DNA from: Streptomyces sp. NRRL S-87
GTDB taxonomy: Bacteria; Actinomycetota; Actinomycetes; Streptomycetales; Streptomycetaceae
NCBI RefSeq assembly: GCF_000719335.1
Contig: NZ_JOGB01000085.1
Coordinates: 1-25,272, forward strand
Reading direction: 5' to 3'
Length of the DNA: 25,272 nt
The notes beneath the pieces were generated by a model. It worked only from the letters and a program-made list of their open reading frames with translations. It was not told where the DNA came from and did no database searches. Below are positions 4,805 through 22,864 of this stretch, one piece after another. Position numbers and translations under genes: made by a program. Within the stretch, counting starts at the first letter, position 1. Every line of letters begins with the position of its first letter.

Positions 4805-4990
4805 CTACTCGTCCTCGTCGTCCTCGTCGTCCAGCCGGGCCAGCCAGGTGGCGAGGCGCTCGACCGGGACCTCGAAGTCCGGGTTCAGGTCGACGAAGGT
4901 GCGCAGCTGCTCCGCGAGCCACTCGAAGGTGATCTCCTCCTCGCCGCGCCGCTTCTCAAGCTCCTCGATGCCGCGATCGGTGAAGTACAC
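4805..4990 (-). CDS. Small acidic DUF6104-family protein
   Basis: A 61-residue cytoplasmic protein of unknown function, widespread in streptomycetes and matching what I recall of DUF6104. It begins MYFTDRGIEELEKRRGEEE, continues with a conserved helical segment containing FEWLAEQLRTFVDLNPDFEVP, and ends in an acidic tail (LDDEDDEDE). The N-terminal GIEELEKRR resembles helical protein-protein interaction segments. The GTG start at 4990 has GGAG about seven bases upstream. It is transcribed away from the trypco operon. The acidic tail is encoded by a GTC/CTC repeat. I cannot assign a role. Confidence 0.85.
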   Translation of the reverse strand: MYFTDRGIEELEKRRGEEEITFEWLAEQLRTFVDLNPDFEVPVERLATWLARLDDEDDEDE

Positions 4991-5146: not shown

Positions 5147-5713
5147 ATGGCCGACGAACTGGTCAGCGTGGAGCTGGACGGGAAACCCGTGCTGATGCGG
5201 GTGAGCGGCGCCGGGCGGCTGCCGCTGGTCCCGGCTCAGGGGACGTACCCGGACCCCGGCGGGGCAGCGCACGGCGGCACCGGCCGGCCCACCGGCACCG
5301 GCACCGGCACCGGCAAGTACGCCGACACCGGCAAGTACACCGACACCGGCAAGGTCGCCGACCGCGTGGCCCGGGGCATCGAGGGGCTCGACGACCTCGT
5401 GCGGGGCGTCGCGGGGGCCATGCGCCGGGCCACCGAGGCCCTCGAACCCCAGCAGGTCAGCGTCTCCTTCGGCATCGAACTGGCCGCCAAGCCCGGCAAG
5501 GTCGTTTCGTTGCTCGCGGACGTGGAGGGCAAGGCGGCCCTGACGGTGACCCTGACCTGGCAGAACGACAGGCAGGACGGCGGTCACCCCGACGGGCGCG
5601 CCGACGGCCGGGACCGCGGCCGGAGCGCCGTACGGGACGACGGGCCGCCCACCGACGGGCCGCCAGTCGACGGGCCGCCCCCCGGCGGGCCGGGCCGGGA
5701 GGCCCGGGGGTGA
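5147..5713 (+). CDS. Trypsin-co-occurring domain protein (trypco1, CU044_2847-like)
   Basis: A 188-residue protein of the trypco1 family, small domains that comparative genomics finds next to trypsin-like proteases in NTP-dependent conflict systems. The domain is split: a first strand pair at residues 1-25 (ELVSVELDGKPVLMRVSG) and the body at about 75-145 (GLDDLVRGVAGAMRRAT, VSVSFGIELAAKPGKVV, AALTVTLTW). The segment at 40-72 is low complexity and holds three 6-residue TGKYAD-like repeats. The C-terminal 40 residues are Asp/Gly/Pro-rich and probably disordered. The stop overlaps the protease GTG by four bases (GTGA), so the two are translated together. The likely role is an adaptor or regulator of the protease; this is inference. 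Confidence 0.85.
   Translation: MADELVSVELDGKPVLMRVSGAGRLPLVPAQGTYPDPGGAAHGGTGRPTGTGTGTGKYADTGKYTDTGKVADRVARGIEGLDDLVRGVAGAMRRATEALEPQQVSVSFGIELAAKPGKVVSLLADVEGKAALTVTLTWQNDRQDGGHPDGRADGRDRGRSAVRDDGPPTDGPPVDGPPPGGPGREARG
5309..5362 (+). repeat. Three tandem 18-bp repeats in the trypco1 gene
   Basis: Copies at 5309-5326, 5327-5344 and 5345-5362 follow ACCGGCAAGTACGCCGAC with few changes and are in frame, encoding TGKYAD, TGKYTD and TGKVAD. Just upstream, 5291-5310 is a run of the 6-base unit ACCGGC. The array is likely length-variable among strains. Confidence 0.85.
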
Positions 5714-7803
5714 CGTACGGGCGCACGGCCGGCTCCGCGCGCGCCTTCGAGATCCTCGAACCCCTCGTCACGGCCGCGACCGTACGCGTCCACGCCCCGC
5801 CCCCCGGGTATGAACCGGACGAGTACGGCGCGCCCGGGGCCGGCGACATCTGGGGGAGCGGCTTCTTCGTGGCCCCCGGGTGGGTCCTGACGTGCGCGCA
5901 CGTGGTCGGGGAGGGAGGTGGCGGCGCGGTGCGGACCGTCGGCCGCGAGGTCGGCATCACCTTCGCCCCCGGCGTCGGCCCGGCGACCGGCACGGTCGCG
6001 GGCCGGGTGGAGTGCGTCCTGCCCGAGGTCCCCGTCCCCGCCGGCGGCATGTGGCCCGCCCCCGACCTGGCGCTCGTCCGCGTCCTCGACCCCGTCGACC
6101 ACGCGTGCGTGTGGCTGACCGACCGCCCGCGCGTCAACCGCTTCGCCGACGTGGCGTACTTCGGCTGCACCGACGACACCGGCCGCCCCGAGATCACCGG
6201 CCGCCCCACCCGGCTGCGCGGCGACCTCGGCGGCAGCGCCATGGTGCGGCTCGGCGCCGACGACGAGGTCGACCCGGGGATGTCCGGCGGGCCCGTCGTC
6301 GACCTGGAGCGCGGCGAGGTCGTCGGCGTCGTCAAGGCCCGCCGCAACGACCGCGGCGGCGGCCTGGCCGTCTCCGTCACCCAGCTGCGCACCCTCCCCT
6401 CGACCGCCAAGACCGGCCTGTACCGGCGGGTGCTGCGGGCCCACGACCGCTACCACCACGACCAGCACCAGAGCGACCAGAACACCCGCCCCACCTGGAC
6501 GGACGCCCACACCCGCCTCCAGGACGGGGCCGCCGGCGAGCCCGTCGGCCGGTGCCTGACCGCCGCCGAGCGGACCACCCTCACCGGGCTGCTCGCCGAA
6601 CTCCCGCCGCCCGCCTCCTCCGAAGCCGTCCAGCGGCTGGTCGCCGACGTCCTGGGCGAGGACTGGACCGGCCTCGGCATGGCCCCACTGACCTGGCGCG
6701 ACGGCCTGGGCATGCTCTACGACCCGGCCGGCGAGCGCAGCGAGGCCGCCGTGATGCTCCGGTACGCCACCGACGTCTCCGTGGCCGAGCACCGCGAGAC
6801 TCCGCTGTCCGGGGCGGACGAGGACCTGTGGGACTGGGTACGGGCCACCGCGGCCGGCGGCCGGTTCTGGCGCGGCCTGCGCAAGGACCTCGGCGACCGG
6901 CGCGAAGCGGGCCTGGCCGCCCGGCGGCACGGCGGCCAGGCGCCGCCCGCCGGCGCGCCGCTGCCGGGCGCGGCCGGGGCACTGCCGCCCGGGCCCTCGG
7001 TGCTGCTGGAGGTCTGGTCGCACGGCTGGGAGGAGGCGTACGACTGGCGGGTCTCGGTGCTGCTCGGACCCGAGCACACGGCCCCGATCGGCTCCGGCGT
7101 CCGGGCCACCCGGGACGGACTGCCCGACGCCGTGCGGGCCCCGCTGGCGGAGGCGTTCCGCCGCTGCGACACCACCGGGGCGGCCGCCCTGCTGGAGGCC
7201 GCGGTGGCGCCCGAGCTGTTCGGACTGGCCGTCGACGAGTGGATGGTCGCGGGCGGGGTGCCGGTGGGAGTGCAACGGCCCGTGGTGCTGCGCTGGCCCG
7301 GCGGCACCGGCGAGGACGGCTGGCCGGACGGCCCGGGCGGCGGCCGGCCCGGCGGGACCGGCACGGGCGGGGAGGACTTCCGGCGGATGGCGGCCCGCTG
7401 GGCCCGGGTCATGGCCGGCCCGGTCCAGGAGGCGCGCGCCGACTGCCGGGGCGGCCGGCCGCGTACGCCGCCGTACGCCTGGCTCGGGGCCCTGCCCGAG
7501 AACACGGTGCCGGCGCACTGCCGCATGGGCGGTCTGCACGCGGTCCAGCGGGCCGGGTTCGGCGTGGTGCTGTGCCGGCGGCCCCCGGCGGGCGGCGGCT
7601 CCTGCGCGCCCTTCCACCGGGGCGTCAAGGAGGAGCTGGCCGAGGCGGTGCGGGGCGACGCGCTGCCGGTACGGCTGCAGGCGCTGCGCGGGCGGGCCTA
7701 CGGGCGCGACCCGGACGCGTACTGGGCCACCGGGCTCGGACTCGTGTGGGACGACCCGCGCCGACCGCTGCCGACCGTCGACCCGCTCCAGGGCGACCTG
7801 TGA
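5710..7803 (+). CDS. Trypsin-like serine protease fused to VMAP-type C-terminal region
   Basis: A 697-residue cytoplasmic protein (no signal peptide or membrane segment) with a trypsin-like domain at residues 1-255. The catalytic triad is visible: His64 in LTCAHVV, Asp119 in PDLALV and Ser192 in GMSGGP. About 283-385 is a helical middle region (LTAAERTTLTGLLAEL, MAPLTWRDGLGMLYDP) that I read as the VMAP middle/effector-associated part. About 430-697 matches the VMAP-C region (VLLEVWSHGWEEAYDW, YAWLGALPEN, HRGVKEELAEAVR, WDDPRRPLP). In the ternary systems VMAP is encoded with a MoxR ATPase and a vWA protein, and both follow here. The GTG start overlaps the trypco1 stop. I infer a signal-activated protease effector; its substrate is unknown. 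Confidence 0.88.
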   Translation: MTYGRTAGSARAFEILEPLVTAATVRVHAPPPGYEPDEYGAPGAGDIWGSGFFVAPGWVLTCAHVVGEGGGGAVRTVGREVGITFAPGVGPATGTVAGRVECVLPEVPVPAGGMWPAPDLALVRVLDPVDHACVWLTDRPRVNRFADVAYFGCTDDTGRPEITGRPTRLRGDLGGSAMVRLGADDEVDPGMSGGPVVDLERGEVVGVVKARRNDRGGGLAVSVTQLRTLPSTAKTGLYRRVLRAHDRYHHDQHQSDQNTRPTWTDAHTRLQDGAAGEPVGRCLTAAERTTLTGLLAELPPPASSEAVQRLVADVLGEDWTGLGMAPLTWRDGLGMLYDPAGERSEAAVMLRYATDVSVAEHRETPLSGADEDLWDWVRATAAGGRFWRGLRKDLGDRREAGLAARRHGGQAPPAGAPLPGAAGALPPGPSVLLEVWSHGWEEAYDWRVSVLLGPEHTAPIGSGVRATRDGLPDAVRAPLAEAFRRCDTTGAAALLEAAVAPELFGLAVDEWMVAGGVPVGVQRPVVLRWPGGTGEDGWPDGPGGGRPGGTGTGGEDFRRMAARWARVMAGPVQEARADCRGGRPRTPPYAWLGALPENTVPAHCRMGGLHAVQRAGFGVVLCRRPPAGGGSCAPFHRGVKEELAEAVRGDALPVRLQALRGRAYGRDPDAYWATGLGLVWDDPRRPLPTVDPLQGDL

Positions 7804-7853
7804 CCCGCACGCGGTACGCCGGCCCCGCCCGGGGGCGGCGTCGACGAAGGAGA

Positions 7854-7874
7854 ATGGGGGCTTGCCGTGAATGA
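7854..7874 (+). other. Six-codon mini-ORF overlapping the MoxR start
   Basis: ATG 7854 opens a six-codon frame (MGACRE) ending in TGA at 7872-7874, just inside the MoxR coding start at 7867. The best AAGGAG in the region (7847-7852) is only 1 base from this ATG and 14 bases from the MoxR GTG, so neither spacing is ideal. It may tune MoxR translation or be accidental. Confidence 0.25.
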
Positions 7875-8871
7875 CGAGTGGCTCATCTACCGCGGCGTCG
7901 GGGAGCCGCACGACGGGATCGCCGCGCTGCCCGACCCGCCGCCCTGGCGCGACTTCGACGGCGGACCGGTGGCGGCGGCCGACCCGGCGGACGCCGAGCC
8001 CGACAGCACCGCCGCGCGCCGCCTGGGCGCCCACCGGCACGCGGCCGAGCTGCACCGCCCCGAGACCGAGGAGCTGGAGGCCATCAACGCGGCGCTCTAC
8101 CTGCGCCGCCCGCTGCTGGTGACCGGCCAGCCCGGCACCGGCAAGTCCACGCTCGCGCAGGCCGTGGCGCACGAACTGAAGCTCGGCCGGGTGCTGCGCT
8201 GGCCCGTGGTCTCGCGCACCGTCCTCCAGGAGGGCCTCTACCGGTACGACGCCATCGCCCGGCTCCAGGACGTGCAGATCGCCGCCAACGGCGGGACCCC
8301 CGCCCCCGGCATCGGGACCTACATCCGGCTCGGCCCCCTCGGCACCGCCCTGCTGCCCTCCGAGCGGCCGCGCGTGCTGCTCGTCGACGAGCTCGACAAG
8401 AGCGACATCGACCTGCCCAACGACCTCCTGAACGTCCTGGAGGAGGGGGAGTTCGCCCTCCCGGAGCTGGAGCGGGTCGCCGACCGCGAGCCCGAGGTCG
8501 AGGTGCTCACCGACGACGGGCGCAAGGTGACCGTCCGGGACGGCCGGATCCGCTGCCGGGCCTTCCCGTTCATCATCCTGACCAGCAACGGCGAACGGGA
8601 GTTCCCTGCCGCCCTGCTGCGCCGGTGCATCCAACTCCGGCTGGCCCAGCCGGACGAGAAGCGGCTGGCGACGATGGTGCGGGCGCACCTCGGCGAGGAG
8701 GCCGCCCGGCTGGGGGCCGACCTGATCCGCGAGTTCCTCAGCCGCTCCCAGACGGAACTCGTCGCCGCCGACCAGCTCCTGAACGCCATCTACCTCACCC
8801 ACCACGCGGCCCCGCCCTCCCGCGAGGACCTGGCCGACCTGCTCATCCAGCGCCTCGACCGCTCCCGGTGA
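7867..8871 (+). CDS. MoxR-family AAA+ ATPase
   Basis: A 334-residue AAA+ ATPase of the MoxR group, which works with vWA-domain partners as a chaperone or remodelling machine. Walker A is GQPGTGKST at 87-95; Walker B is VLLVDELDKSD at 170-180 with Asp174 and Glu175. Sensor 1 is TSN at 239-241, and LLRRC at 250-254 carries the likely arginine finger. The N-terminal segment (WLIYRGVGEPHDGIAALPDPPPWR) is characteristic of MoxR proteins in VMAP/SAV_2336 neighbourhoods. GTG 7867 is chosen for that conserved N-terminus; its ribosome binding site is ambiguous. It lies 63 bases after the protease gene and 27 before the vWA gene, clearly one operon. No transmembrane segment is seen. Confidence 0.93.
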   Translation: MNDEWLIYRGVGEPHDGIAALPDPPPWRDFDGGPVAAADPADAEPDSTAARRLGAHRHAAELHRPETEELEAINAALYLRRPLLVTGQPGTGKSTLAQAVAHELKLGRVLRWPVVSRTVLQEGLYRYDAIARLQDVQIAANGGTPAPGIGTYIRLGPLGTALLPSERPRVLLVDELDKSDIDLPNDLLNVLEEGEFALPELERVADREPEVEVLTDDGRKVTVRDGRIRCRAFPFIILTSNGEREFPAALLRRCIQLRLAQPDEKRLATMVRAHLGEEAARLGADLIREFLSRSQTELVAADQLLNAIYLTHHAAPPSREDLADLLIQRLDRSR

Positions 8872-8898
8872 CCGACTCGACCGTCAGGGTGACCCGCG

Positions 8899-11800
8899 AT
8901 GACCGCGTCCGCCGCAGGCCCGGGCCCAGGCCCGGAGCCCCGTCACGACCCCGACCCCGACCCCACCCCCGATCCTCATCCCGCCCGAGCCCAAGCCCGA
9001 GCTCAGGCCCCGGCCCCCGCCCCCGCCCCGCCCCCCGCTCCTGACGCGCCGCGCGAACTCCGGCGCCTGGTGCGGGTGCTGCGCGCCGCCGGGCTCGACC
9101 CCGATGCCGAGGAGCTGGCCGACGCGCTGTGGCTGGCCGCGGCCCGCGGCGGCCCCGTGCCGGCGACCGCGGCCCCGGCCGGCCGGCCGCCCGTACGACG
9201 GTCCGGGGAGCCCCCGCGGGAGCCGGCGGCGGCCCCGCGCCCCGGCCCGGGCCCGGCCGCGGGCCCCGACCGGCCCGCCGACCCCCAGGTCACCCTGTAC
9301 GCCCCCGGCCGCCCCGGCCCCGCGGGCGAGCCCGCCGGGAGCCGGCCCGCCGGCGCCGCCGTGCCCGTCCGCGTGCCCGCCGCCGGCGCCCTGCCCCGGA
9401 TCCTCGACATCCAGCGGGCGCTGCGCGCCCTGCAGCGCCACCGCCCGCCCGCGCCGCCCGCCCGGCTGGTCCTCGACGAGACCGCCACCGCCGACGCCAG
9501 CGCCCGCGCCCTGGGCCTGGCGATCCCCGTCATGCGCCCCGAGAACCGCCGCGAGACCACCCTGCGCCTGGTGCTCGACGCCTCGCCGTCGATGGCCGTC
9601 TGGCGGGACCTGTTCGACGAACTCCGGGGCGTCTGCGAGCGGCTGGGCGCCTTCCGTGACGTCCAGGTCCACCACCTGCACCGGCTGCCCGACGGCACCG
9701 CCGCCGTCGGCCGCGGCCCGGAGCCCGACACCCCGCTGCGCTCGGGGGAGCAGCTGCGCGACCCCACCGGCCGCGGCCTGACCATGGTGGTCAGCGACTG
9801 CGCGGGGCCGGTGTGGCGGGAGGGAGGGGCCCAGCGGCTGCTGTACCGCTGGACCGAGTGCACCCCCTCGGTGATCGTCCAGCCGCTGCCGCAGCGCCTG
9901 TGGGCCCGTACCTGGCTGCCGACCGAGCGCGGCCTCCTCGCCCGGACGGAGGACCCGGCGGGTCCGCTGCGGTTCGCCGCCGACCGGCCGCCGCTGCCGG
10001 GCCGGCCCCGCGGCGGGCTGGCCGTACCCGTGCTGCCGCCCAGCGCGCCCGCGCTCGGCGCCTGGGCCCGCCTGGTGGCCGGGCTCGGGGACGGGGCCGT
10101 GCCTGCCGAGGTGGGGCGGGTGCTGGCCGCCCACCCCGCCGTGCCGCTGCCGCCGCCCCGGGCCGCCCGGCCGGCCCGGGACCTGGTCCGCCGCTTTCGC
10201 TCCTCCGCGGCCCCGCGCGCCGTGCAGCTCGCCGTGTACCTGGCCGCCACGCCGCTCAACCTGCCGGTGATGCGCATGGTGCAGCGCACGATGCTGCCCG
10301 GCTCGGAGCCCTCCGACCTCGCCGAGGTGCTGCTGAGCGGGCTGCTGCGGCGCACCGGCCCGGGGCCCGGGGAGTGGTACGAGTTCGTCGACGGCGTCCA
10401 GGACGTGCTGCTCGGTCCGCTGGGGCGGGACGAGGCCGCCCTGGTCCTCAAGCACTGCTCGGAGTACGTCCTCCAGCACTTCGGCCGGGGCGTGCGCAAC
10501 TTCCCGGCCCTGGCCGCGGCCCAGCTCACCGGCGCGCCCCCGCCCGAGGCGGTCGCACCCACCGGTGCGGGCGCGGGGGAGGCGTCGGGCCGCCCGGCCC
10601 CGGCCCGGCTGCCGCAGGCCTTCGCGCAGGTGTCCGCCAAGGTCGTGCACCGCTACCTGCCGGCCCCGGACGCCCCCGCCGGGGTTGCGGACCCGGCCGT
10701 GACGCCCCCGGCACCCGACCGGGCGGCGGCGGTCGCCACGGCCCGCGGCCGCCTCGCCGTGTTCGACCGGGACGGCAACCAGGGCGCCCTGCACGAGGCC
10801 GTGGCGGTCCTGCGCCGGGCCACGGCCGCGGCCGGGCACGCCCCCGGCGAGGCCGAGGCGGAGCTGGCGGGGGCGCTGCTGCGGCTGTGGCAGGTGCAGC
10901 GCGATCCGGAGCTGCTGGCCGAGGCCGAGCGGGCGGCCCGCCAGGTCGCCGGCCTGCCCGGGCTGGTACGGGCCCGCGCCGTGCTCGGGCGGGTGCTCTA
11001 CGAGCGGGCCACCGACCCCGCAGCCGCCGCCCCCGCGGGGCCCGGCGCGACCGGTGCGCGCGGCGGGGCCGTCGCCGAGCTGCTGGCCGCCGCCGACCGG
11101 GAGTTCGCGGCGGTGGGCGCGGCACCCGGGGCGGAGCCCGCGCTACGGCTGGACTGCGTCCTGCGCCGCGCCGAGGTGCTGACCCGGCTGGCCGTGCTGC
11201 GCGGCGATCCGGGCGCCCTGCACGACGCACTGGCCGCCCTGGAGGAGTTCGACGTCGGTGAGCGGGCGCGCGGGGCCGCCCGGGACGGGGACCTGCAGCT
11301 GGCGCTGGGCCGGGTGCTGGCGGCGCTCGCCGAGCGGGCCGGCGACCCCGCCGGGCGGACCGAGCTGGCCCGGCGGGCGGCCGTACGGCTGGACGCGGGG
11401 CTCGCGGCCCTGGTGGCGGCGGCCGCCGACGACCCGCCCGGGCACGGCTCCGCCGTCGCGGCCCGGCACGCCCGCGCGCGGGCCCGGCTGGACCTGGCCA
11501 CCGCCCTGCGCCACCTGCCCGACCGGCTCGACGAGGCACTCGCGCAGGCCGGCACCGCGCTCGACGAGGCCACCGGTGACCCGGAACTCCGACTGGCCGG
11601 CCTGGTCCGGCTGGCCCGGGTGCACCTGGCCCGGTGGGAGCGCTACCGGGAGCCGGCCGCGCTGGAGGCGGCCGCGGACGCGTACGCGCGGGCCCGCCGG
11701 CTGGTGCCCCGCGACGCGGATGCGTACGGCGAACTCCTCGCGGAGTGGGGCGAGGTGCTGCTGGAACTGACCTGGGCCGTGGACGGGCGCCGGTACGCCT

Positions 11801-12405
11801 CGCAGGCCGTCCGCGTGCTGCGCGACAGCCGGGCCGCCGTCCCGCAGCACGACGAGCGCTACGCCCGCCGGTTGACGCGGCTGGCCTGGGGGCTGCGACT
11901 GCGGCACGACCACGAGGGCGACCTGGTGGACCTGCGGGAGGCCGAGTACCTGCTGGAGCTCGCCGTCCGGCACGGCCGGAGCCCGCTGGAGCGGGCCCGG
12001 GCCTGGCGCGAGCACGGCGACGTCCAGCAGGAGATCCACCGTCACACGCGGGCCGCCGACCGGCTGGACCGGGCCGCCGACTCCTACCGGCGGGCCTGGC
12101 GGGCCGCGCTGGAGGCGGACGCGGGGGAGCGGCGCGGCGCGGCCCTCGCGCTCGCCGCGCGCGTCCAGCAGCTGCGCGGCGAGGTGCTGGAGCGGCTGGA
12201 ACGGCCGCGTGCGGCGCTGGACGCCTACCGGTCGGCACTGGAGCTGTGGCAGTGGCTCGACGCGGCGCCGGCCGCGGCGGACGAGGGGACCGCGGGGCCG
12301 TGGACGGCGCACGCCGGGGGCCCGGACGCACGGGCGGCGCCCGGGGACCAGGGGCTCAGGGAGGCGGTCCGTGCGCGGGCCCGTGCGCTGGGGGGCGCCC
12401 TGTGA
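8899..12405 (+). CDS. SAV_2336-family protein: vWA-like domain plus TPR-like repeats
   Basis: A 1168-residue cytoplasmic protein. Residues 1-46 are Pro/Ala-rich and disordered. About 47-80 is a conserved helical segment (LRRLVRVLRAAGLDPDAEEL). After a second Pro-rich linker comes the family signature near 165-200 (GALPRILDIQRALRALQ). The vWA-like domain is at about 220-400 with an intact DxSxS metal site (Asp227, Ser229, Ser231) and a second acidic residue Asp300 in MVVSDCAG. A conserved middle region (PRAVQLAVYLAATPLNLPVM) precedes a C-terminal solenoid of helical repeats from about 620 to 1165, rich in A-E-L-A-R heptads like TPRs. It is the likely vWA partner of the MoxR ATPase. RBS at the ATG is modest (AGGG). 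Family is confident; mechanism inferred. Confidence 0.88.
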   Translation: MTASAAGPGPGPEPRHDPDPDPTPDPHPARAQARAQAPAPAPAPPPAPDAPRELRRLVRVLRAAGLDPDAEELADALWLAAARGGPVPATAAPAGRPPVRRSGEPPREPAAAPRPGPGPAAGPDRPADPQVTLYAPGRPGPAGEPAGSRPAGAAVPVRVPAAGALPRILDIQRALRALQRHRPPAPPARLVLDETATADASARALGLAIPVMRPENRRETTLRLVLDASPSMAVWRDLFDELRGVCERLGAFRDVQVHHLHRLPDGTAAVGRGPEPDTPLRSGEQLRDPTGRGLTMVVSDCAGPVWREGGAQRLLYRWTECTPSVIVQPLPQRLWARTWLPTERGLLARTEDPAGPLRFAADRPPLPGRPRGGLAVPVLPPSAPALGAWARLVAGLGDGAVPAEVGRVLAAHPAVPLPPPRAARPARDLVRRFRSSAAPRAVQLAVYLAATPLNLPVMRMVQRTMLPGSEPSDLAEVLLSGLLRRTGPGPGEWYEFVDGVQDVLLGPLGRDEAALVLKHCSEYVLQHFGRGVRNFPALAAAQLTGAPPPEAVAPTGAGAGEASGRPAPARLPQAFAQVSAKVVHRYLPAPDAPAGVADPAVTPPAPDRAAAVATARGRLAVFDRDGNQGALHEAVAVLRRATAAAGHAPGEAEAELAGALLRLWQVQRDPELLAEAERAARQVAGLPGLVRARAVLGRVLYERATDPAAAAPAGPGATGARGGAVAELLAAADREFAAVGAAPGAEPALRLDCVLRRAEVLTRLAVLRGDPGALHDALAALEEFDVGERARGAARDGDLQLALGRVLAALAERAGDPAGRTELARRAAVRLDAGLAALVAAAADDPPGHGSAVAARHARARARLDLATALRHLPDRLDEALAQAGTALDEATGDPELRLAGLVRLARVHLARWERYREPAALEAAADAYARARRLVPRDADAYGELLAEWGEVLLELTWAVDGRRYASQAVRVLRDSRAAVPQHDERYARRLTRLAWGLRLRHDHEGDLVDLREAEYLLELAVRHGRSPLERARAWREHGDVQQEIHRHTRAADRLDRAADSYRRAWRAALEADAGERRGAALALAARVQQLRGEVLERLERPRAALDAYRSALELWQWLDAAPAAADEGTAGPWTAHAGGPDARAAPGDQGLREAVRARARALGGAL

Positions 12406-12498
12406 GCGCGCTGTTTTCCGGACCTGTGCTGCGGGAAAGTGGACTGGACCGCGCCGTGGGTCGCCGCGCGTGCGGGACGACCGGGGGACAAGGAGCTG
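12406..12498 (+). other. Intergenic gap before the putative precursor peptide
   Basis: Ninety-three bases separate the vWA gene from the peptide gene, the widest gap so far in the cluster. An in-frame GTG at 12439 would extend the peptide by 20 residues but has no separated ribosome binding site. AAGGAG at 12490-12495 serves the preferred ATG/GTG starts at 12499/12502. No strong promoter is visible. Confidence 0.4.
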
Positions 12499-12687
12499 AT
12501 GGTGACAGAGCGTCAGGAAAGCACCGCGCGGGCGTGCCAGGGCCTGCTGCCCGATCTGTCCGGGCTGGATCTGGCCACCCTGCGCGGGATCGACCACGCG
12601 GTGCTCGCGGGGGTGATCGAAGGCCTGGTCGCACGCGTCACGCACCCGGCCGACGTGCTGAGCGACTACGCGGAGCGGGCGTCCTGA
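12499..12687 (+). CDS. Putative cyclophane RiPP precursor peptide (FxsA-like, atypical C-terminus)
   Basis: A 62-residue peptide directly upstream of a FxsB-like radical SAM maturase. Its leader-like part (LLPDLSGLDLATLRGIDHAV at 16-35) matches my recollection of FxsA-type leaders with alternating Leu/Asp helices. The C-terminus reads ...SDYAERAS and does not carry the FxSxx-COOH motif. Phe and Trp are absent; Tyr57 is the only non-His aromatic residue, so a Tyr57-Ala58-Glu59 three-residue cyclophane is the simplest predicted product. His33 and His49 are other possible sites. AAGGAG lies 3 bases before ATG 12499 and 6 before an in-frame GTG at 12502, either of which may be used. The call rests on context plus leader resemblance. 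Confidence 0.7.
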   Translation: MVTERQESTARACQGLLPDLSGLDLATLRGIDHAVLAGVIEGLVARVTHPADVLSDYAERAS

Positions 12688-12816
12688 GGGCCGCGGCCGC
12701 CGGTGGGGCGCACGGGTCGCAACCGGTCCGAAGGCGACCGTGGTTGACCGTATTCCGTCGTTAGGCGGTCACGGCCGGAGGGCAGGGATGGACCGTCCGC
12801 AGGGGGAGGAACACGG
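12688..12816 (+). other. Gap between precursor peptide and maturase genes
   Basis: This 129-base spacer holds a GGCCGCGGCC palindrome right after the peptide stop (12689-12698) and a TTGACC -35-like element at 12744-12749 with no well-spaced -10. GACCGT is repeated at 12736 and 12747. The arrangement could raise peptide transcript over maturase transcript by partial termination, as often seen in RiPP operons. GGGGGAGGA at 12802-12810 is a strong ribosome binding site for the maturase. Confidence 0.4.
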
Positions 12817-14181
12817 ATGAGGCCCAGGACCACCGAGGGCGGCGGCACGCGCGCGCACCACCGCCACGCCCCCTGGCCCTACGCGCGCCTCGACGTCCCC
12901 GCCCTGCGCGCGGCCGGCCACCGGCCGCACCCGCTGCGGCAGTTCGTCCTCAAGACCCGCAGCCGCTGCAACCTCGCCTGCACGTACTGCTACGTCTACT
13001 CCATGGCCGACCAGAGCTGGCGCGGCCGGCCCGACGCGATGTCCACCGCCACCCAGGACCTGGCCGCCCGCCGCATCGCCGAGCACGCCCGCACCCACCG
13101 CCTCGCCCGCGTCGACCTCGTCCTGCACGGCGGCGAACCGCTGCTCGGCCCGCCCGAGCACCTCACCGGCCCCGTGGACCGCATCCGGGCCGCCCTCGCC
13201 CCCGGCACCGAGGTCACCGCCGCCGTGCAGACCAACGCCACCCTCCTCACCCCCCGCCGCCTGGACGCCCTGGCCGCCGCGGACATCCGGGTCGGCGTCA
13301 GCGTCGACGGCGGCCTGCCCGCCCACAACGCCCGCCGCGTCACCCACCGCGGCCGCCCCGCCTTCGCCGCCGTCGACCGCGGCCTGCGCCTGCTGGCCCG
13401 GCGGCCCGAGAGCTACGCCGGACTGCTGTGCGTGGTCGACATCGGCCAGGACCCGGTCGAGACCTACGAGTCCCTGCTCGGCTACGCCCCGCCCACCCTC
13501 GGGCTGCTGCTGCCGCTCGCCCACTGGAGCAGCCCGCCGCCCGGCGCCCGGCCCGGCCGCACCCCGTACGGGGACTGGCTGGTGGCCGTCTTCGACCACT
13601 GGTGGCGGGCCGAGACCCGGCGCACCCGCATCCGGCTCTTCGAGGAGGTCATCGCCCTGCTGCTCGGACTGCCGGCCGCCACCGAGGAACTCGGCCTCGG
13701 CCCGGTCGCCGCCGCCGTGATCGAGACCGACGGCACCCTTGAGCAGGCCGACTCCCTCAAGTCCGCCTACGAAGGCGCCGCCCGAACCGGCCTGCGACTC
13801 GACACCCACAGCCTCGACGCACTGCTCGACCACCCCGGCATCGCCGCCCGCCAGCTCGGACGCGCCGCGCTGGCCGCCGAGTGCCGGGAGTGCGAACTCG
13901 TCGCGGTCTGCGGGGGCGGGCACTACCCGCACCGGTACCGGGCCGGGGCCGGCTTCCGCCAGCCCTCGGTCTACTGCGCCGACCTCCAGGTGCTCATCCG
14001 GCACGTCGCCGCCGCCCTGCACGCCGCCGCGACCGGCGCCACCGCCGCGGACCCCGGGACCGCCGCCACCGCCGCGCCCCCCGCGAGAGCCGGGACCACC
14101 GCCGCGACCACCGCCGCCGGCACCCCCACCGCCACGACCGGCGGCGCCGCCGCGGGCCCCGCCCGGGAGCTCGCCTCGTGA
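12817..14181 (+). CDS. fxsB: FxsB-like radical SAM/SPASM cyclophane-forming peptide maturase
   Basis: A 454-residue radical SAM enzyme predicted to build a C-C cross-link in the upstream peptide. The [4Fe-4S]-SAM motif CNLACTYC gives Cys51, Cys55 and Cys58, and LHGGEPLL (about 106-113) is the expected GGEP box. The C-terminal SPASM-like region has Cys356, Cys359, Cys365 and Cys387 in the pattern CxxC-x5-CGGGHYPHRY...PSVYCADL, which is characteristic of FxsB. The last 55 residues are Ala/Thr/Gly low complexity, unlike the catalytic part, and look disordered. ATG 12817 follows a strong GGGGGAGGA. Its stop overlaps the hydroxylase GTG by four bases. FxsB enzymes join an aromatic ring to the beta carbon of a residue two positions on. 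Substrate assignment here is inferred. Confidence 0.9.
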   Translation: MRPRTTEGGGTRAHHRHAPWPYARLDVPALRAAGHRPHPLRQFVLKTRSRCNLACTYCYVYSMADQSWRGRPDAMSTATQDLAARRIAEHARTHRLARVDLVLHGGEPLLGPPEHLTGPVDRIRAALAPGTEVTAAVQTNATLLTPRRLDALAAADIRVGVSVDGGLPAHNARRVTHRGRPAFAAVDRGLRLLARRPESYAGLLCVVDIGQDPVETYESLLGYAPPTLGLLLPLAHWSSPPPGARPGRTPYGDWLVAVFDHWWRAETRRTRIRLFEEVIALLLGLPAATEELGLGPVAAAVIETDGTLEQADSLKSAYEGAARTGLRLDTHSLDALLDHPGIAARQLGRAALAAECRECELVAVCGGGHYPHRYRAGAGFRQPSVYCADLQVLIRHVAAALHAAATGATAADPGTAATAAPPARAGTTAATTAAGTPTATTGGAAAGPARELAS

Positions 14182-15587
14182 CGGGGGGCCCAGAGGTCCC
14201 CGGGTTCCTGCGCGCCGAAGGCCCCGTGCTGCGCGCCCTCGCCAGTACGGAACCCAGCCCCGAGGGCGCCCGGCTGCTGCGCGACGCCCGCCGCAGCAAG
14301 CGCCTGCTGCTCCTGCGGGCCGTCCTCGACGCGGCGCCGGACGGCGAGGGCGCGGAGCACTGGGCCCTGCTCGAAGAGGCCGAGCGCCACGACCCCGCCG
14401 CCGTCCAGGACGTCCTGCACTACCCGTCCACCGGTGTCTGGGCCGAGGAGACCCTGCGCCTCCTGCACCCCTCAGCCGCCGACGGACCGCACGGCGGACC
14501 GCATGACGGACCGCATGACGCACGGCACGACGGCAGCCCCGACGCCACCCCCGCACCCGGCAGCCCCGACGCCACCCCCGCACCCGGCCGCCCCGCGGGC
14601 ACCGGCACCGGTGGCGGCCCGGCCCGCCGCCGCCCCGCCACCGCACCCGACCTCGGCCACCTCGGCGCCCTCGCCGTGGCCGCCGCCCTGCGCGCCGGCC
14701 TGACCTTCAAGGCCGTCCTGCGCCCCACCCAGGGCCGCATCGCCCTGCCCACTCTCGGCCTGCTCCGCCCCGCCCGGCCCGGCCCGGTCGCCCTCACCGA
14801 GGCCTCCTGGGACCCGTCCGACCCCGCCGTGCTGCCCCTGCACGCGCTCCCCGGCGGCCGGACCGTCCTCGACGACCTCGACCCGTACCGCGCCCCCGCC
14901 ACCGGCATGCCCGTCCAGGCCGCCCGCCGCCTCACCCCGCGCGGCCACCGCCGCTGGGACACCCAGTGGTCCGCCGCCCTCACCCTGCTCGACCGGTACG
15001 ACCCGGCCCGCGCCGCGGAGGCCGCCGGACTGCTGCGCTCCGTCGTACCGCTCGCCGGCGGCTCCCGCTCCACCGGCGCCACCCTGCCCGCGGCCCCCGG
15101 CTCCGTCCTGGTCCGCAGCCAGTCCCCGCCGGCCCTGGCCGCCACGCTCGTCCACGAGGTCCAGCACGGCAAACTCGCCGCCCTCACCGACCTCGTCACC
15201 CTGCACACCGCCGACCGCACCCCGCGCCACTGGGCACCCTGGCGCAGCGACCCCCGCCCGTTCGAGGGACTCCTGCACGGCACGTACGCCCACCTCGCCC
15301 TGGCCCGCTACTGGCAGCGCGCCGCCCTCTTCGGTGCCCGGGCCGCGTGGGCCACCCACGCCCGCTACCGCGCCCAGGTGGCCGCCGTGCTCCCCGGCCT
15401 CCAGGACCACCCCCACCTCACCCCCGCCGGACGGGAGTTCACCCGCGCCATGGCCGAGGCCGAGGCCGCCATGGACGAACTGCCCCCGCCCGGCGACCCG
15501 TACGCCACCGCCCGCGCCGCCCTCGCCCGCGAGCGCCGCGCCTGGCTCGACCGGCACCCCGAACTCGCCGCGGTCACACCGGGTTGA
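14178..15587 (+). CDS. HExxH-type putative peptide beta-hydroxylase
   Basis: A 469-residue protein of the HExxH peptide-modification family, whose members are regarded as alpha-ketoglutarate- and iron-dependent peptide beta-hydroxylases. The metal motif HEVQH is at residues 326-330, in LVHEVQHGKLAALTDLV. The C-terminal helical region (LLHGTYAHLALARYWQRAA, REFTRAMAEAEAAMD) is typical. In some FxSxx systems this domain is fused to FxsB as FxsBH; here the two genes are separate and joined by a GTGA overlap. Residues about 98-140 form a His/Pro/Asp-rich insert with repeats, probably a flexible loop between the N-terminal helical domain and the catalytic domain. Start GTG 14178 is set by the overlap. 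The hydroxylated residue in the peptide is unknown. Confidence 0.85.
   Translation: MTGGPEVPGFLRAEGPVLRALASTEPSPEGARLLRDARRSKRLLLLRAVLDAAPDGEGAEHWALLEEAERHDPAAVQDVLHYPSTGVWAEETLRLLHPSAADGPHGGPHDGPHDARHDGSPDATPAPGSPDATPAPGRPAGTGTGGGPARRRPATAPDLGHLGALAVAAALRAGLTFKAVLRPTQGRIALPTLGLLRPARPGPVALTEASWDPSDPAVLPLHALPGGRTVLDDLDPYRAPATGMPVQAARRLTPRGHRRWDTQWSAALTLLDRYDPARAAEAAGLLRSVVPLAGGSRSTGATLPAAPGSVLVRSQSPPALAATLVHEVQHGKLAALTDLVTLHTADRTPRHWAPWRSDPRPFEGLLHGTYAHLALARYWQRAALFGARAAWATHARYRAQVAAVLPGLQDHPHLTPAGREFTRAMAEAEAAMDELPPPGDPYATARAALARERRAWLDRHPELAAVTPG
14481..14585 (+). repeat. Tandem repeats in the HExxH gene, including an exact 27-bp duplication
   Basis: 14532-14558 and 14559-14585 are identical 27-base units, in frame, encoding GSPDATPAP twice. 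Just upstream, 14481-14520 has three 12-base GACGGACCGCAY-type units encoding DGPH-like repeats. The exact identity implies a recent duplication in the linker. Confidence 0.9.
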
Positions 15588-15672
15588 TGCCCCGTGACCT
15601 GCGGTATCTTTCCCCCCGTCCACACCCGTCCCGCGGACCGCGTCCGAGGGAGCCTCCACAGGGAGACGGTGC

Positions 15673-18666
15673 ATGACCGCCAGCCGGCAGGACCTCGAAG
15701 GCGCACCCCAGCGCTTCGTCATCAGCTTCGCGGGGTTCAACCGCCCCTGGGCGGCGTGGATCGGCCACCGCCTGGAGGAGCACGGCCACCGGGTCGCCCT
15801 CCAGCGCTGGGACCCGCAACGGGCCGGCGACCTCGGCGAGGCCCTGGAGGACCTGGTCCGGCCCGGCGCGCGCGTCCTGATCGTGCTCAGCGAGCGCTAC
15901 TTCTCCGGCGGCGCCCACACCGAGGAGCAGTGGAACACCGCCCTGCGCACCGTCATCCGCGCCCACCCCGACCGGTTCGCCGCCGTCAGCCTCACCGACG
16001 TCCGGCTCCCCGCCGCCACCGCGGCGCTGGAACAGGTGGAGCTGTGGAGCGTGGACGCGTACGAGGCCGAGTACCGCGTCCTGCGCCGCCTGGAGCTGCC
16101 CACCGACCGCATCGGCACCGAGACCGGCCGACGCGGCCCCCGCTTCCCCAACGACCCGCCCGAGATCTGGGGCCGGGTACCGCGCCGCAACCCCCGCTTC
16201 ACCGGCCGCAACGACGTCATCGGACGGCTCCGCGAGGCCCTCGCCGAAGCCCCGCCCGGCGCCGCGACCGTCACCCTCCTCGGCCTCTCCGGCGTGGGCA
16301 AGACGCAGATCGCCACCGAGTACGCCTACCGGTTCGCCTCCGAGTACGACGTCGTGTGGTGGGTCCCCGCCGAGGACCGGCCCACCCTGCGCGAACGCCT
16401 CGCCGACCTGGCCCCCGCCCTCGGACTGCCGCTGGGCACCGGCAGCTACGGCGAGCAGATCCGCGCCACCCTCGAAGCCCTGCGCCGGGGCTCCCCGTAC
16501 GGCCGCTGGCTCATCGTCTTCGACGGCTGCGACAACCCCGACGACCTCACCGACCTGCTGCCCTCCGGCGCCGGCGACGTCATCATCACCTCCCGCAACC
16601 GCGAGTGGGCCTCCCGGCACACCAACCTGGTCGAGGTCCCCCTCTACGCCCGAGCCGAGTCGATCACCTTCATCCGGCGCCGCGCCCAGCGACTGGGCGG
16701 CGAGGAGGCCGACCAGCTCGCCGAGGCCCTGGAGGACTACCCCCTCGCCCTCGACCAGACCGCCGGCTGGCTCGCCTCCTCGCCCCTGACCGTCGGCGAC
16801 TACCTCACCCTGCTGCGCCGCAGACTGGACTCCCACGAGGCCGTCACCGTCTCCGAGGACTACCCGCTGCCCTTCCCCACCGCCCTGGCCATACTCCTCA
16901 ACAACGTCCGGGAGAACTTCCCCGACGCCCTGGCCCTACTGCGGCTGTTCGTGTTCTTCGCCCCCGGGCCCGTACCGCTACGCCTGCTGCGCGAGTTCCC
17001 CGCCGACGAGGTGCCCGAGCAGCTCGCCGGGCTCATCAACGACCAGATCCGCTGGAACGCCGCCCTCAACAAGCTCGTGCAGTTCTCCGTGGTCCGCCTG
17101 GAGTACTCCGACCTGCCCGTGGACGAGGGCGGCGGCGGGCTGGAGACCGTCCAACTGCACCGCATGGTGCACAACATCGTGCGCGACAACCTCGCCGAGG
17201 AGGAGGCCGTCCCGCTCGCCCGCGCCGTCCGCCAGGTGCTCGCCGCGGCCGACCCCGGCCGCCCCTCCGACTCCCGCCTGTGGCCCCGGTACGCCGAGCT
17301 CATCCCGCACCTCGAACCCGCCGGCGTCCTGACCAGCACCAACCCGCGCATCCAGAACTTCCTCCTCAACTGCCTGCGCTACCTGATGCTCAGCGGCGAG
17401 TACCGCACCTGCCTGCGGCTGGCCGAGCAGGCCGACGGCGCCTGGCGCGCCATGCTCGGCGACGACCACGACCAGGTCCGCGAGCTCAGCTACCAGTACG
17501 GCGGCGCCCTGCGCATGCTCGGCCACTTCCGGCAGGCCGAGGCACTCAGCCGCAGCCGCCTCGAACGCCTCACCGCCGAGCGCGGCGACCGCGACCTGGA
17601 GACCCTGCGGGCCATGTCCGCGCACGGCGGCGTCCTGCTCCGCGTCGCCCGCTTCGAGCAGGCCCACCAGCTCTTCGAGCGCATCCTCGGCGCCTACCGC
17701 GAACTCCTCGGCGAGGACCACTCCACCACCCTCAACGAGCAGAACAACCTCGCCGCCGCACTGCGCCTGCTCGGCCGCTACCAGGAGGCGTACGACCTCG
17801 ACCTCGACACCCAGCGCCGGCGCGAGCGCGTCCTGAAGGTCCGGCACATCGCCACCCTCAACTCCGGCATCGCCTGCGCCATGAACCTGCGCCTGATGGG
17901 CCGCTACCGCGAGGCCCTCACCCGGCAGGAGCAGGGCCTGCGCCTCAACACCCAGGTCCTGGGCGCCAACCACCCCCAGACCCTGCGCGCCGAGCACAAC
18001 CTCGGCCTGTGCCTGCGCCGTTCCGGCGACATCCCCGGCGCCGGCGCCCGGCTGCGCAGCGTCTGGGAGCGCTCCACCCGCGTCTTCGGCGCCAGTTACC
18101 CGTGGACCCTGATGGTGGCCTCCGACTACGCCACCTACCTGCGCGAGTACGGCGACATCGAGGAGGCCCGCCGCATCTCCGAGGACGTCGTGCGCGGCTA
18201 CCAGACGCAGCTGGGCCTGGCCCACCCGTACAGCATCGGCACCGTCGCCAACCTCGGCCTGGTCCTGCGCGCCCAGGGCGAGCGCGAGGAGGCCCTCAGC
18301 CTGTGCGAGCAGGCCCTGGTCGGCATGCGCAACGCGCTCGGCGACCGGCACCCGTGGACCCTCGGCGTCGCCCTCAACGCCGCCGGCTGCCGCAACATCA
18401 CCGGCCGGCTGGAAGACGCCGCCGGCCTCAGCCGCGAGACCCTGCGCACCGCCGAGTCCGTGCTCGGCGGCGAGCACCCCATGGTGCTCAGCCTCCAGAC
18501 CTCGCTCGCCGCCGACCTGCGGGCGCTCGGGCGCATGGAGGAGGCGGGCAAGCACGAGGACGACGCCCTGCGGATGCTGACGCGCACCCTGGGCACGCAG
18601 CACGTCCACACCGTCTCGGCCCGCCAGCGCGTCCGGCCGTACTGGGACTTCGAGCCGCAACCCTAG
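15673..18666 (+). CDS. fxsT: FxsT-like TIR / NB-ARC-type ATPase / TPR protein
   Basis: A 997-residue STAND-like protein found in FxSxx-COOH systems. Residues about 14-145 form a TIR-type domain (RFVISFAGFNRPWAAWIGHR; LSERYFSGGAHTEEQW, where Glu84/Glu85 are candidates for a catalytic glutamate). About 175-480 is an NB-ARC-like NTPase: P-loop GLSGVGKT at 204-211 and Walker B WLIVFDGCD at 279-287, with a winged-helix-like region ending near MVHNIVRDNL. From about 550 to 985 there are some ten TPR units of the 42-residue kinesin-light-chain type (AALRLLGRYQEA). The design resembles NLR-type sensors: repeats sense, NTPase oligomerises, TIR acts. ATG 15673 has GGGAG eight bases upstream. It is 85 bases after the hydroxylase gene and may have its own promoter. 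Confidence 0.9.
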   Translation: MTASRQDLEGAPQRFVISFAGFNRPWAAWIGHRLEEHGHRVALQRWDPQRAGDLGEALEDLVRPGARVLIVLSERYFSGGAHTEEQWNTALRTVIRAHPDRFAAVSLTDVRLPAATAALEQVELWSVDAYEAEYRVLRRLELPTDRIGTETGRRGPRFPNDPPEIWGRVPRRNPRFTGRNDVIGRLREALAEAPPGAATVTLLGLSGVGKTQIATEYAYRFASEYDVVWWVPAEDRPTLRERLADLAPALGLPLGTGSYGEQIRATLEALRRGSPYGRWLIVFDGCDNPDDLTDLLPSGAGDVIITSRNREWASRHTNLVEVPLYARAESITFIRRRAQRLGGEEADQLAEALEDYPLALDQTAGWLASSPLTVGDYLTLLRRRLDSHEAVTVSEDYPLPFPTALAILLNNVRENFPDALALLRLFVFFAPGPVPLRLLREFPADEVPEQLAGLINDQIRWNAALNKLVQFSVVRLEYSDLPVDEGGGGLETVQLHRMVHNIVRDNLAEEEAVPLARAVRQVLAAADPGRPSDSRLWPRYAELIPHLEPAGVLTSTNPRIQNFLLNCLRYLMLSGEYRTCLRLAEQADGAWRAMLGDDHDQVRELSYQYGGALRMLGHFRQAEALSRSRLERLTAERGDRDLETLRAMSAHGGVLLRVARFEQAHQLFERILGAYRELLGEDHSTTLNEQNNLAAALRLLGRYQEAYDLDLDTQRRRERVLKVRHIATLNSGIACAMNLRLMGRYREALTRQEQGLRLNTQVLGANHPQTLRAEHNLGLCLRRSGDIPGAGARLRSVWERSTRVFGASYPWTLMVASDYATYLREYGDIEEARRISEDVVRGYQTQLGLAHPYSIGTVANLGLVLRAQGEREEALSLCEQALVGMRNALGDRHPWTLGVALNAAGCRNITGRLEDAAGLSRETLRTAESVLGGEHPMVLSLQTSLAADLRALGRMEEAGKHEDDALRMLTRTLGTQHVHTVSARQRVRPYWDFEPQP

Positions 18667-18682
18667 AGACGCCGTGCACGCC

Positions 18683-18718
18683 GGAAGGCCCGGCCCCCGC
18701 GAGGGGACCGGGCCTTCC
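18683..18718. terminator. Bidirectional terminator between fxsT-like gene and kgd
   Basis: GGAAGGCCCGG (18683-18693) pairs exactly with CCGGGCCTTCC (18708-18718). Inside, CCCC (18694-18697) can pair with GGGG (18703-18706), leaving a small CGCGA loop and one bulge. It lies 17 bases after the plus-strand stop and 17 bases past the end of kgd on the minus strand, so it can serve both convergent transcripts. Confidence 0.85.
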
Positions 18719-18734
18719 GATGCGTCTACGCGAC

Positions 18735-22604: not shown

Positions 22605-22864
22605 GGCGGCAACCGCCCTCTTCCGCTTCACAAGGTGATGGACAGCGGGAATAAAGGCTACGCCTTGCCGGGCGGGTGATGCAGGCCGGGCGGTGCTTTG
22701 GTCGTGCACGTCACATCGAACGGCGGGTTTCACGGGCTGGAATGGCGGGAAACAAGCGTGGTTCGCGTACGCGCGATCGAGGGTGCGGCCTCCGGGCCCG
22801 CATCCTGACCTGATCCTCGGCACACCGTGGCCGAGATCACTGCGTTCTCTGTTCGAACCCTACG
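22605..22864. other. Upstream region of kgd
   Basis: This 260-base region separates kgd from the histidine kinase gene, both on the minus strand, and should hold the kgd promoter. GAGGGCGG about 11 bases before the GTG is the likely ribosome binding site. A 10-bp palindrome, CGCGTACGCG, lies at 22764-22773, and a weak 6-bp stem (22783-22788 with 22798-22803) could help end the kinase transcript. No gene is convincing here. Confidence 0.4.

What the first reader, a model, noticed from the sequence alone, without database searches (positions are those of the whole stretch)
5147..18666. Eight-gene island joining a VMAP/MoxR/vWA protease system to a cyclophane RiPP and a TIR-NTPase-TPR protein
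The sequence shows eight co-directional genes: trypco1, trypsin-VMAP-C, MoxR ATPase, SAV_2336 vWA/TPR-like, small peptide, FxsB-like radical SAM, HExxH hydroxylase-like, TIR/NB-ARC/TPR. Two gene pairs overlap by GTGA. Known families: VMAP ternary systems and FxSxx-COOH systems are each predicted from comparative genomics, with little biochemistry. Their combination suggests that a modified peptide is the ligand, guard or effector of an NTP-dependent immune or stress-response device with a protease and a TIR domain as outputs. The joint function is inference.
Basis: partly seen in the sequence, partly recalled or inferred. Interest (0 to 1): 0.92.

Follow-up and report, generated by a model that had tools for sequence, protein, structure and literature searches.

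The report
Streptomyces conflict-system operon with modified peptide
Next to a housekeeping gene in many Streptomyces sits an eight-gene module that combines a predicted immune-like protease/ATPase machine with a small, probably chemically modified peptide; the combination was already described in print, but here it looks like one inherited unit that comes in three versions with different peptide chemistry.

Summary
In detail: eight co-directional genes fill 5147-18666, between a 61-aa gene and sucA, with both GTGA overlaps. The architecture is not new: Kaur et al. 2020 (PMC7159879) describe VMAP ternary systems with an FxSxx-type peptide module and a separate TIR/AP-ATPase/TPR gene. They called the HExxH protein a peptidase; it now matches the aKG-HExxH hydroxylase family.

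Found here: (1) The module has a fixed site. Of 56 Streptomyces genomes with both flank genes on one contig, 31 hold both halves, 1 lacks the VMAP half, 1 lacks the RiPP half, 23 hold neither (2 of these keep an orphan HExxH gene, 1 a TIR-TPR fragment). (2) There are three chemotypes: FxsB+HExxH, FxsB only, HExxH only. The peptide tail fits the enzymes in 34 of 34 loci and in all 66 typable of 80 loci of a second, slightly overlapping set. (3) MoxR and SAV_2336 trees split exactly by chemotype, the adjacent sucA tree does not; operon proteins co-vary (r 0.72-0.96), weakly with sucA (0.29-0.40). Both halves are thus inherited together. (4) The window's peptide ends in YAERAS, not FxSxx. (5) At the likely catalytic TIR position the window has Gln where 81 of 89 have Glu.

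Function is untested.

The parts
4805..4990 (-). 61-aa conserved flank gene, left border of the site
   Evidence: match in 60 of 61 genomes; no NCBIfam hit
5147..5713 (+). Trypco1 protein, 188 aa
   Evidence: PF19493 53.3 bits
5710..7803 (+). Trypsin_2 + VMAP-C protein, 697 aa, GTG start, GTGA overlap with trypco1; His64/Asp119/Ser192 present
   Evidence: PF13365, PF20028; His in 103, Asp in 104, Ser in 105 of 105 aligned relatives
7867..8871 (+). MoxR-type AAA+ ATPase, 334 aa
   Evidence: PF07728; GQPGTGKST and DELDKSD in invariant or nearly invariant columns of 19 orthologues
8899..12405 (+). SAV_2336-family protein, 1168 aa: N-terminal region with DASPS MIDAS-like motif (D227) and C-terminal TPR superhelix (about 608-1167)
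   Evidence: NF041121 450.6 bits; motif; model and fold search
12499..12687 (+). precursor peptide, 62 aa, tail ...DVLSDYAERAS; predicted (not shown) Tyr57-Glu59 cyclophane
   Evidence: NF041709 33.3 bits and TIGR04268 25 bits, both below cut-off; protein homologues; orthologues at the same place
12817..14181 (+). FxsB-family radical SAM/SPASM protein, 454 aa
   Evidence: TIGR04269 434.3 bits; CxxxCxxC and SPASM cysteines conserved in 77-78 of 78
14178..15587 (+). aKG-HExxH-type peptide beta-hydroxylase-like protein, 469 aa, GTGA overlap with FxsB
   Evidence: TIGR04267 145.4 bits; HExxH in 83 of 83; PDB 22nu E 8e-19 and ChlH 8s5f E 1.6e-7
15673..18666 (+). TIR - P-loop NTPase (AP-ATPase/NB-ARC-like) - TPR protein, 997 aa
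   Evidence: NF040586 835.2 bits, TIR_2 66.2 bits; TIR fold
18682..18719 (.). hairpin in the spacer between the operon and sucA, likely terminator
   Evidence: z -6.0 for 18667-18734
18735..22823 (-). sucA (2-oxoglutarate dehydrogenase E1; name from recall), right border of the site
   Evidence: open frame; its C-terminal part matched in 60 of 61 genomes; neighbour

Best explanation
This is a VMAP ternary NTP-dependent conflict (immune-like) system with a built-in RiPP module, inherited as one unit at the sucA-adjacent site. SHOWN by sequence comparison: the genes, their fixed site, their joint inheritance, and the match between peptide tail and tailoring enzymes. INFERRED: FxsB cross-links Tyr57 to Glu59 of the precursor's tail and the HExxH enzyme oxidises a residue beside it. 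As no exporter or dedicated leader-peptidase gene lies in the window's module, the product probably stays in the cell, where it serves as a licence or tethered ligand for the machine: held by the vWA/TPR protein and/or the TPR face of the TIR-NTPase, it keeps the complex off or marks it ready. On an invasion or stress cue the MoxR ATPase remodels the vWA-VMAP complex, the trypsin domain cuts its targets (possibly the peptide leader or the vWA protein), and the NTPase-TPR protein assembles to arrest or kill the cell.
For: Both halves in 31 of 33 occupied sites. Six operon proteins co-vary with r 0.72-0.96, partial r given sucA 0.68-0.95, against 0.29-0.40 with sucA. MoxR trees (32 rows, IQ-TREE quick; 96 rows, FastTree) and a SAV_2336 tree (94 rows, FastTree) need only 2 changes for three chemotypes, the minimum; the sucA tree (28 rows) needs 9. 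Enzyme content fits peptide tail in 34 of 34 loci (tails read by pattern and by eye) and in 66 of 66 typable of 80 loci of a GTDB scan, two of them shared with the first set (profiles trained on the first set). Motifs of protease, AAA ATPase, HExxH, FxsB and NTPase are conserved. Literature seen in passages: MscB joins Phe C4 to Ser Cbeta (PMC11002830); ChlH hydroxylates His/Asp (PMC12636437). That MscB is of the FxsB family rests on a recalled equivalence of IPR026335 and TIGR04269.
Against: No expression, phage or mass data. G014 keeps peptide, FxsB, HExxH and TIR-TPR at the site while tblastn finds no VMAP-half gene there (L041), and G017 keeps a VMAP system without FxsB or HExxH (L166), so neither half strictly needs the other. 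Two genomes keep only the HExxH gene, as an open frame with dN/dS 0.38, which suggests a use apart from this system. No protein was shown to bind the peptide. Chemotype and gene lineage are confounded by common descent, and the sucA tree keeps some signal of chemotype (9 changes, shuffled mean 13.1, as low in 2 of 200).
Confidence: 0.5

Rival explanations
1. The peptide is a toxin or alarm signal that amplifies the response (the suggestion of Kaur et al.): inert on its leader, it is freed by the trypsin-VMAP protein or by the HExxH enzyme and then poisons or signals.
For: Kaur et al. propose a peptide toxin or signal. A protease is encoded in the operon. HEXXH enzymes PflC and PosC can cut the backbone oxidatively (passages of PMC12636437).
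Against: No immunity or exporter gene in the window's module; no obvious conserved cleavage site seen when the peptides were read by eye (no statistical test); the FxsB-only chemotype has no room for an HExxH gene, so HExxH cleavage cannot be general.
Confidence: 0.2
2. The RiPP half makes an ordinary natural product and the VMAP half is a neighbour co-mobilised at a hot spot.
For: Both halves exist alone elsewhere; the site also takes other cargo: a Trypco1 + trypsin-NB-ARC-TPR pair (L167), SBP_bac_3 and SDR genes (L168, L169).
Against: MoxR and SAV_2336, with no known role in peptide chemistry, split exactly by chemotype, and 31 of 33 occupied sites hold both halves.
Confidence: 0.15
3. The system is a physiological or developmental regulator (stress, sporulation) rather than defence.
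For: Vertical component: the HExxH-only chemotype is clustered on the sucA tree (4 changes against 8.5 shuffled); the operon neighbours a central-metabolism gene.
Against: Patchy presence: 23 of 56 sites lack it, some with relics, and rapid divergence (mean identity within the FxsB+HExxH group 0.48 for trypsin-VMAP against 0.86 for sucA), as is usual for conflict systems.
Confidence: 0.15

Closest known systems
VMAP ternary systems with peptide-processing module (Kaur et al. 2020, PMC7159879; section 24 read whole, other parts as passages)
   Same: Same gene set and logic: peptidase-VMAP with Trypco1, MoxR, vWA-TPR, small peptide, radical SAM-SPASM, HExxH protein, separate TIR-AP-ATPase-TPR gene downstream.
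   Different: They make the HExxH protein the core of the module, as a peptidase, and tie radical SAM to FxSxx tails. Here: tails that are not FxSxx, a chemotype with FxsB but no HExxH, one with HExxH but no FxsB and an unfused TIR-NTPase, a single orthologous site, and block replacement. The parts I read do not give these; their supplements and the rest of the text were not read.
FxSxx-COOH / standalone FxsB systems (NCBIfam TIGR04268, TIGR04269, NF040586)
   Same: FxsB, peptide, HExxH and FxSxx_TPR families are shared.
   Different: In most of the highest-scoring standalone loci the FxsB frame is long (about 730-960 aa) and no SAV_2336 gene lies nearby; in the window FxsB and HExxH are separate genes and a VMAP half precedes them. 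Other FxsB hits without SAV_2336 neighbours have shorter frames.
Triceptides and aKG-HExxH enzymes (MscB, YxdB, ChlH, PflC/PosC; PMC11002830 and PMC12636437, passages)
   Same: Same enzyme families by annotation; i to i+2 cyclophanes; hydroxylation next to a cyclophane.
   Different: The review passages list Arg, Asn, Asp, Ser and Ala as Cbeta partners; the window predicts Tyr-Glu and relatives Tyr-Gln.
Diversity-generating VMAP systems (PMC10907252, passages)
   Same: MoxR, vWA and trypsin-VMAP core with proposed antigen sensing.
   Different: None of the Pfam or NCBIfam matches of the eight window proteins is a reverse transcriptase or C-type lectin; here the variable element is a small peptide.

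Membership tests
VMAP ternary system (Kaur et al.) | VMAP-C protein with N-terminal peptidase | tested here: met
   PF20028 112.8 bits and Trypsin_2 53.9 bits, triad present
VMAP ternary system (Kaur et al.) | MoxR AAA+ partner | tested here: met
   AAA_5 over cut-off; conserved P-loop. The specific bpMoxR model is below cut-off (15.6/27)
VMAP ternary system (Kaur et al.) | vWA protein with MIDAS | tested here: inconclusive
   DASPS motif, first Asp in 95 of 97, but no Pfam VWA match in 18 members; the 50 fold-search rows shown are TPR or other helical-repeat proteins as far as their titles tell
VMAP ternary system (Kaur et al.) | Trypco1 or Trypco2 beside the trypsin gene (frequent, not universal) | tested here: met
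   Trypco1 53.3 bits in the window; not found by tblastn in 25 of 80 GTDB loci, some truncated, nor in the window's closest relatives
FxSxx-COOH RiPP system | precursor ends in FxSxx-COOH | tested here: not met
   tail YAERAS; TIGR04268 25 bits against cut-off 28
YxD-tail cyclophane RiPP (NF041709) | YxD tail over cut-off | tested here: not met
   33.3 against 55 bits, tail Y-A-E
FxSxx-COOH RiPP system | FxsB maturase and FxSxx_TPR protein | tested here: met
   434.3/370 and 835.2/300 bits
aKG-HExxH peptide hydroxylase | TIGR04267 domain with intact HExxH | tested here: met
   145.4/40 bits, HExxH 83 of 83
aKG-HExxH peptide hydroxylase | aKG-dependent hydroxylation of the peptide | not testable with these tools
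   needs enzyme assay
NADase TIR effector | TIR fold | tested here: met
   model mean pLDDT 85.8; among the best PDB matches TIR-STING, BtpA, TLR1, SPARTA TIR, with modest TM-scores (0.45-0.67)
NADase TIR effector | catalytic Glu in helix alphaC | tested here: inconclusive
   register-dependent: position 86 is Glu in 81 of 89, Gln in the window; a Trp-based register (recalled W-x-x-x-E) gives invariant Leu91

The most novel reading that the evidence does not exclude
A chemically modified RiPP is the built-in specificity or licensing ligand of an NLR-like bacterial immune machine, and the sucA-adjacent site is a polymorphic immune locus at which whole machine-plus-peptide chemotypes (cyclophane plus oxidation, cyclophane only, oxidation only) replace each other as blocks, much as alleles at an immune or kin-recognition locus do.
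Probability: 0.3. Interest if true: 0.85.

Novelty: new variant of a known kind. Interest (0 to 1): 0.55.

Why it matters
In the papers I could search and open, VMAP systems with this peptide module carry predictions but no tested function. Three chemotypes at one orthologous site, with divergence in all parts, form a natural swap experiment: which protein recognises the modified tail can be asked by mixing parts from different chemotypes, and which modification is essential can be asked by comparing loci that lack FxsB or HExxH. It would also correct the reading of the HExxH gene as a peptidase.

Tried and rejected
Rejected: that the combination is new. Rejected: that the window's peptide is an FxSxx peptide. 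Rejected: that the HExxH protein is simply a metallopeptidase; its best family and solved relatives are annotated or reported as hydroxylases, though PflC shows that such enzymes can also cut. Rejected as a firm claim: NADase output in this strain. My first view, that the catalytic Glu is lost in the whole family (Leu91 invariant), was withdrawn after aligning other TIR proteins of related genomes, which favours position 86. In that alignment L183, L186, L187, L189, L190 and L192 were translated on the wrong strand or frame (no TIR sequence), and L185 is the window itself; only L180, L181, L182, L184, L188, L191, L193, L194 and L195 were informative.

Led nowhere: PADLOC gave only weak partial matches; phmmer of the TIR domain against PDB sequences gave nothing, its profile only weak SEFIR and one sulfurtransferase match; the spacer between peptide and FxsB folds no better than shuffles (z 0.23) and that between SAV_2336 and peptide hardly better (z -1.04); no paper held three of FxsA, FxsB, radical SAM and Streptomyces; protein search with the peptide gave 6 hits, one of them the window's own. 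ORF matching by length failed for most loci and was replaced. One search stopped at the trypsin-VMAP tree; it and the TIR-TPR tree on the extended set were not made. In one search I gave wrong coordinates for the L028 peptide (it hit FxsB); not used. The first correlations failed for some pairs and were replaced.

Dropped or partial rows: G001, G008, G018, G028, G050 from the site count, because both flanks were not found on one contig. Of the 23 sites without the module, 12 were fetched and screened; the other 11 have spacers of 80-326 bp and were judged by length and by the family searches. 14 of 80 GTDB loci could not be typed: no FxsB, HExxH, TIR-TPR or peptide was found on them, read as truncation near contig ends. 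L009 (assembly gap, partial SAV_2336), L024 (partial TIR-TPR), L077 (partial HExxH) and L013 (short sucA) were left out of some correlations. L039 and L042-L048 were fetched but are not modules at this site. Of the 37 FxsB hits without a SAV_2336 neighbour, 27 were fetched. The 17 fused SAV-NTPase loci were only screened. L179 was fetched and only screened.
Full report
OBSERVATION. The window (contig 85 of an 8.15-Mb assembly; the genus Streptomyces is inferred from the named relatives) has eight co-directional genes at 5147-18666, bounded by a 61-aa gene on the minus strand and by convergent sucA. The model of the SAV_2336 protein (mean pLDDT 76.9) has a mixed alpha/beta N-terminal half and a long C-terminal TPR-like superhelix. 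The trypsin triad, AAA P-loop, HExxH and iron-sulphur cysteines are intact.

PRIOR ART. Kaur et al. 2020 (PMC7159879; section 24 read whole, other parts as passages) state that about 20% of actinobacterial VMAP ternary systems carry a peptide-processing module, that FxSxx types add a radical SAM-SPASM enzyme, and that a TIR-AP-ATPase-TPR gene then follows as a separate gene. This is the window's architecture. They took the HExxH protein for a peptidase that cleaves the peptide. The family is now modelled as aKG-dependent peptide hydroxylase (TIGR04267), with solved relatives 22nu and ChlH 8s5f and reports of both hydroxylation and oxidative cleavage (passages of PMC12636437). Searches for papers with VMAP, MoxR, ternary, anti-phage or Trypco terms listed 8 and 5 papers; I opened three of them (PMC7159879, PMC10907252, PMC10910872) and saw no test of this module in what I read.

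ONE SITE. In 61 genomes of the genus I mapped FxsB (41 of 61 genomes), SAV_2336 (53), FxSxx_TPR (59), VMAP-C (49), the 61-aa gene (60) and sucA (60). In 56 genomes both flank genes lie on one contig. The spacer is bimodal: 80-4547 bp in 23 genomes (at most 233 bp in 15) and 7.7-25.5 kb in 33. Of the 33, 31 hold both halves by tblastn of fetched loci: MoxR, SAV_2336, peptide, one or both tailoring enzymes and TIR-TPR in 31, trypsin-VMAP in 30 (G010 has an assembly gap there), Trypco1 in 26 (not in L009, L012, L013, L016, L021). G014 holds peptide, FxsB, HExxH and TIR-TPR, and tblastn finds no VMAP-half gene there. G017 holds Trypco1, trypsin-VMAP, MoxR and a SAV_2336 protein with a weak FxSxx_TPR-like match in the same frame, and no FxsB or HExxH. 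Among the 23 others, of which 12 were fetched, G012 and G046 keep a lone HExxH gene (69-71% identical to the window's over about 290 residues, open, dN/dS 0.38 between the two over the whole open frame), G024 keeps a TIR-TPR 3' relic, and G007 has a different Trypco1 + trypsin-NB-ARC-TPR pair. The site thus behaves as a spot for gain, loss and exchange of such systems.

THREE CHEMOTYPES. The module occurs with FxsB and HExxH (A1; 16 loci with the window), with FxsB only (A2; 7 loci; the TIR frame follows FxsB directly), or with HExxH only (B; 11 loci). L077 is too short to show a flank gene; L041 is the G014 locus without the VMAP half. Peptides read from these 34 loci by leader pattern and by eye end in F/Y-centred tails in A1 (LWGFNNAF, LNAFDSGVA, LWGYNSAL, LSDYAERAS), in Y/F-[ED]-[DN] tails in A2 (AYYEDAP, AYYDDGP, AYFENGP), and in W-centred tails in B (FWAEGAGG, AWNDGP, VWYTTGG). 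Fourteen could not be typed; of the other 66, 54 were A1 and all had an A1 peptide (aromatic F 51, W 2, Y 1; residue at +2 S 24, N 24, Q 2, R 2, A 1, E 1), 4 were A2 with A2 peptides and 8 were B with B peptides. The peptide profiles were trained on the first set, so this is a replication, not an independent discovery. At least one flank gene was found in 74 of 80; five of the six others are contigs of at most 5.2 kb, and L147 has neither flank within 10 kb. The i/i+2 spacing fits known cyclophanes (review PMC11002830, passages). The window's Tyr-Ala-Glu, with relatives Tyr-Asp-Gln (P0002, P0003) and Tyr-Thr-Gln (L010), predicts Glu or Gln as the Cbeta partner, which the passages I read do not list.

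ONE HISTORY. Pairwise distances of six operon proteins correlate at r 0.72-0.96 (partial r given sucA 0.68-0.95), while their correlation with the adjacent sucA is 0.29-0.40. The MoxR tree of 32 loci puts A1, A2 and B each on one side of a branch (support 97, 92, 99); the sucA tree of 28 needs 9 changes (shuffled mean 13.1, as low in 2 of 200), so some vertical signal remains. With 96 MoxR and 94 SAV_2336 rows (FastTree, several long branches flagged) the split is again exact, 2 changes. Since MoxR and SAV_2336 have no known part in peptide chemistry, this is the best evidence that the VMAP half and the RiPP half form one system that moves as a block. Caveats: sucA is slow and partly truncated in some loci, and near relatives inflate counts.

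TIR. The fold is TIR. Against other TIR proteins of related genomes the helix register E-x-x-x-A-L puts the catalytic Glu at position 86, which is Glu in 81 of 89 family members (19 of 19 B, 55 of 60 A1, 7 of 10 A2) but Gln in the window. The motif itself is recalled and the register is not proven. Whether this copy can cleave NAD is open.

MECHANISM. My best reading is an intracellular modified peptide that licenses or gates a MoxR/vWA/VMAP switch with a protease and an NLR-like TIR-NTPase-TPR output. The linkage is shown; every functional step is inference. A peptide toxin or alarm signal is the main rival.

Noticed in passing
L170 275-1600 and L171 295-1593: In two genomes without the module a lone HExxH hydroxylase gene with intact motif survives between the flank genes, with dN/dS about 0.38 between the two.
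   Followed up: partly
L167 1159-4433: The same chromosomal site in another Streptomyces holds a Trypco1 gene and a trypsin-NB-ARC-TPR fusion, another conflict-type pair.
   Followed up: partly
window 5147-5713; L086-L095, L109: The window's closest relatives in the MoxR tree lack Trypco1: only 120-148 bp lie between the flank gene and the trypsin-VMAP gene, while the window has an intact one.
   Followed up: partly
L041 (G014): Peptide, FxsB, HExxH and TIR-TPR at the site without the VMAP half, with a second FxSxx_TPR hit between them and sucA.
   Followed up: no
L034, L035, L036, L037, L024; G003: The 61-aa flank gene is inverted relative to the other loci in four HExxH-only loci and in L024, and relative to sucA in the empty site of G003.
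   Followed up: no
L145 and L158: FxsB-only peptides ending AYHEDSPDR carry His where relatives have Tyr, which suggests a His-centred cyclophane.
   Followed up: no
window 3891-4663: Just outside the finding: two small overlapping open frames that look like an HTH protein and a Clp N-domain protein; named from recall, not tested.
   Followed up: no
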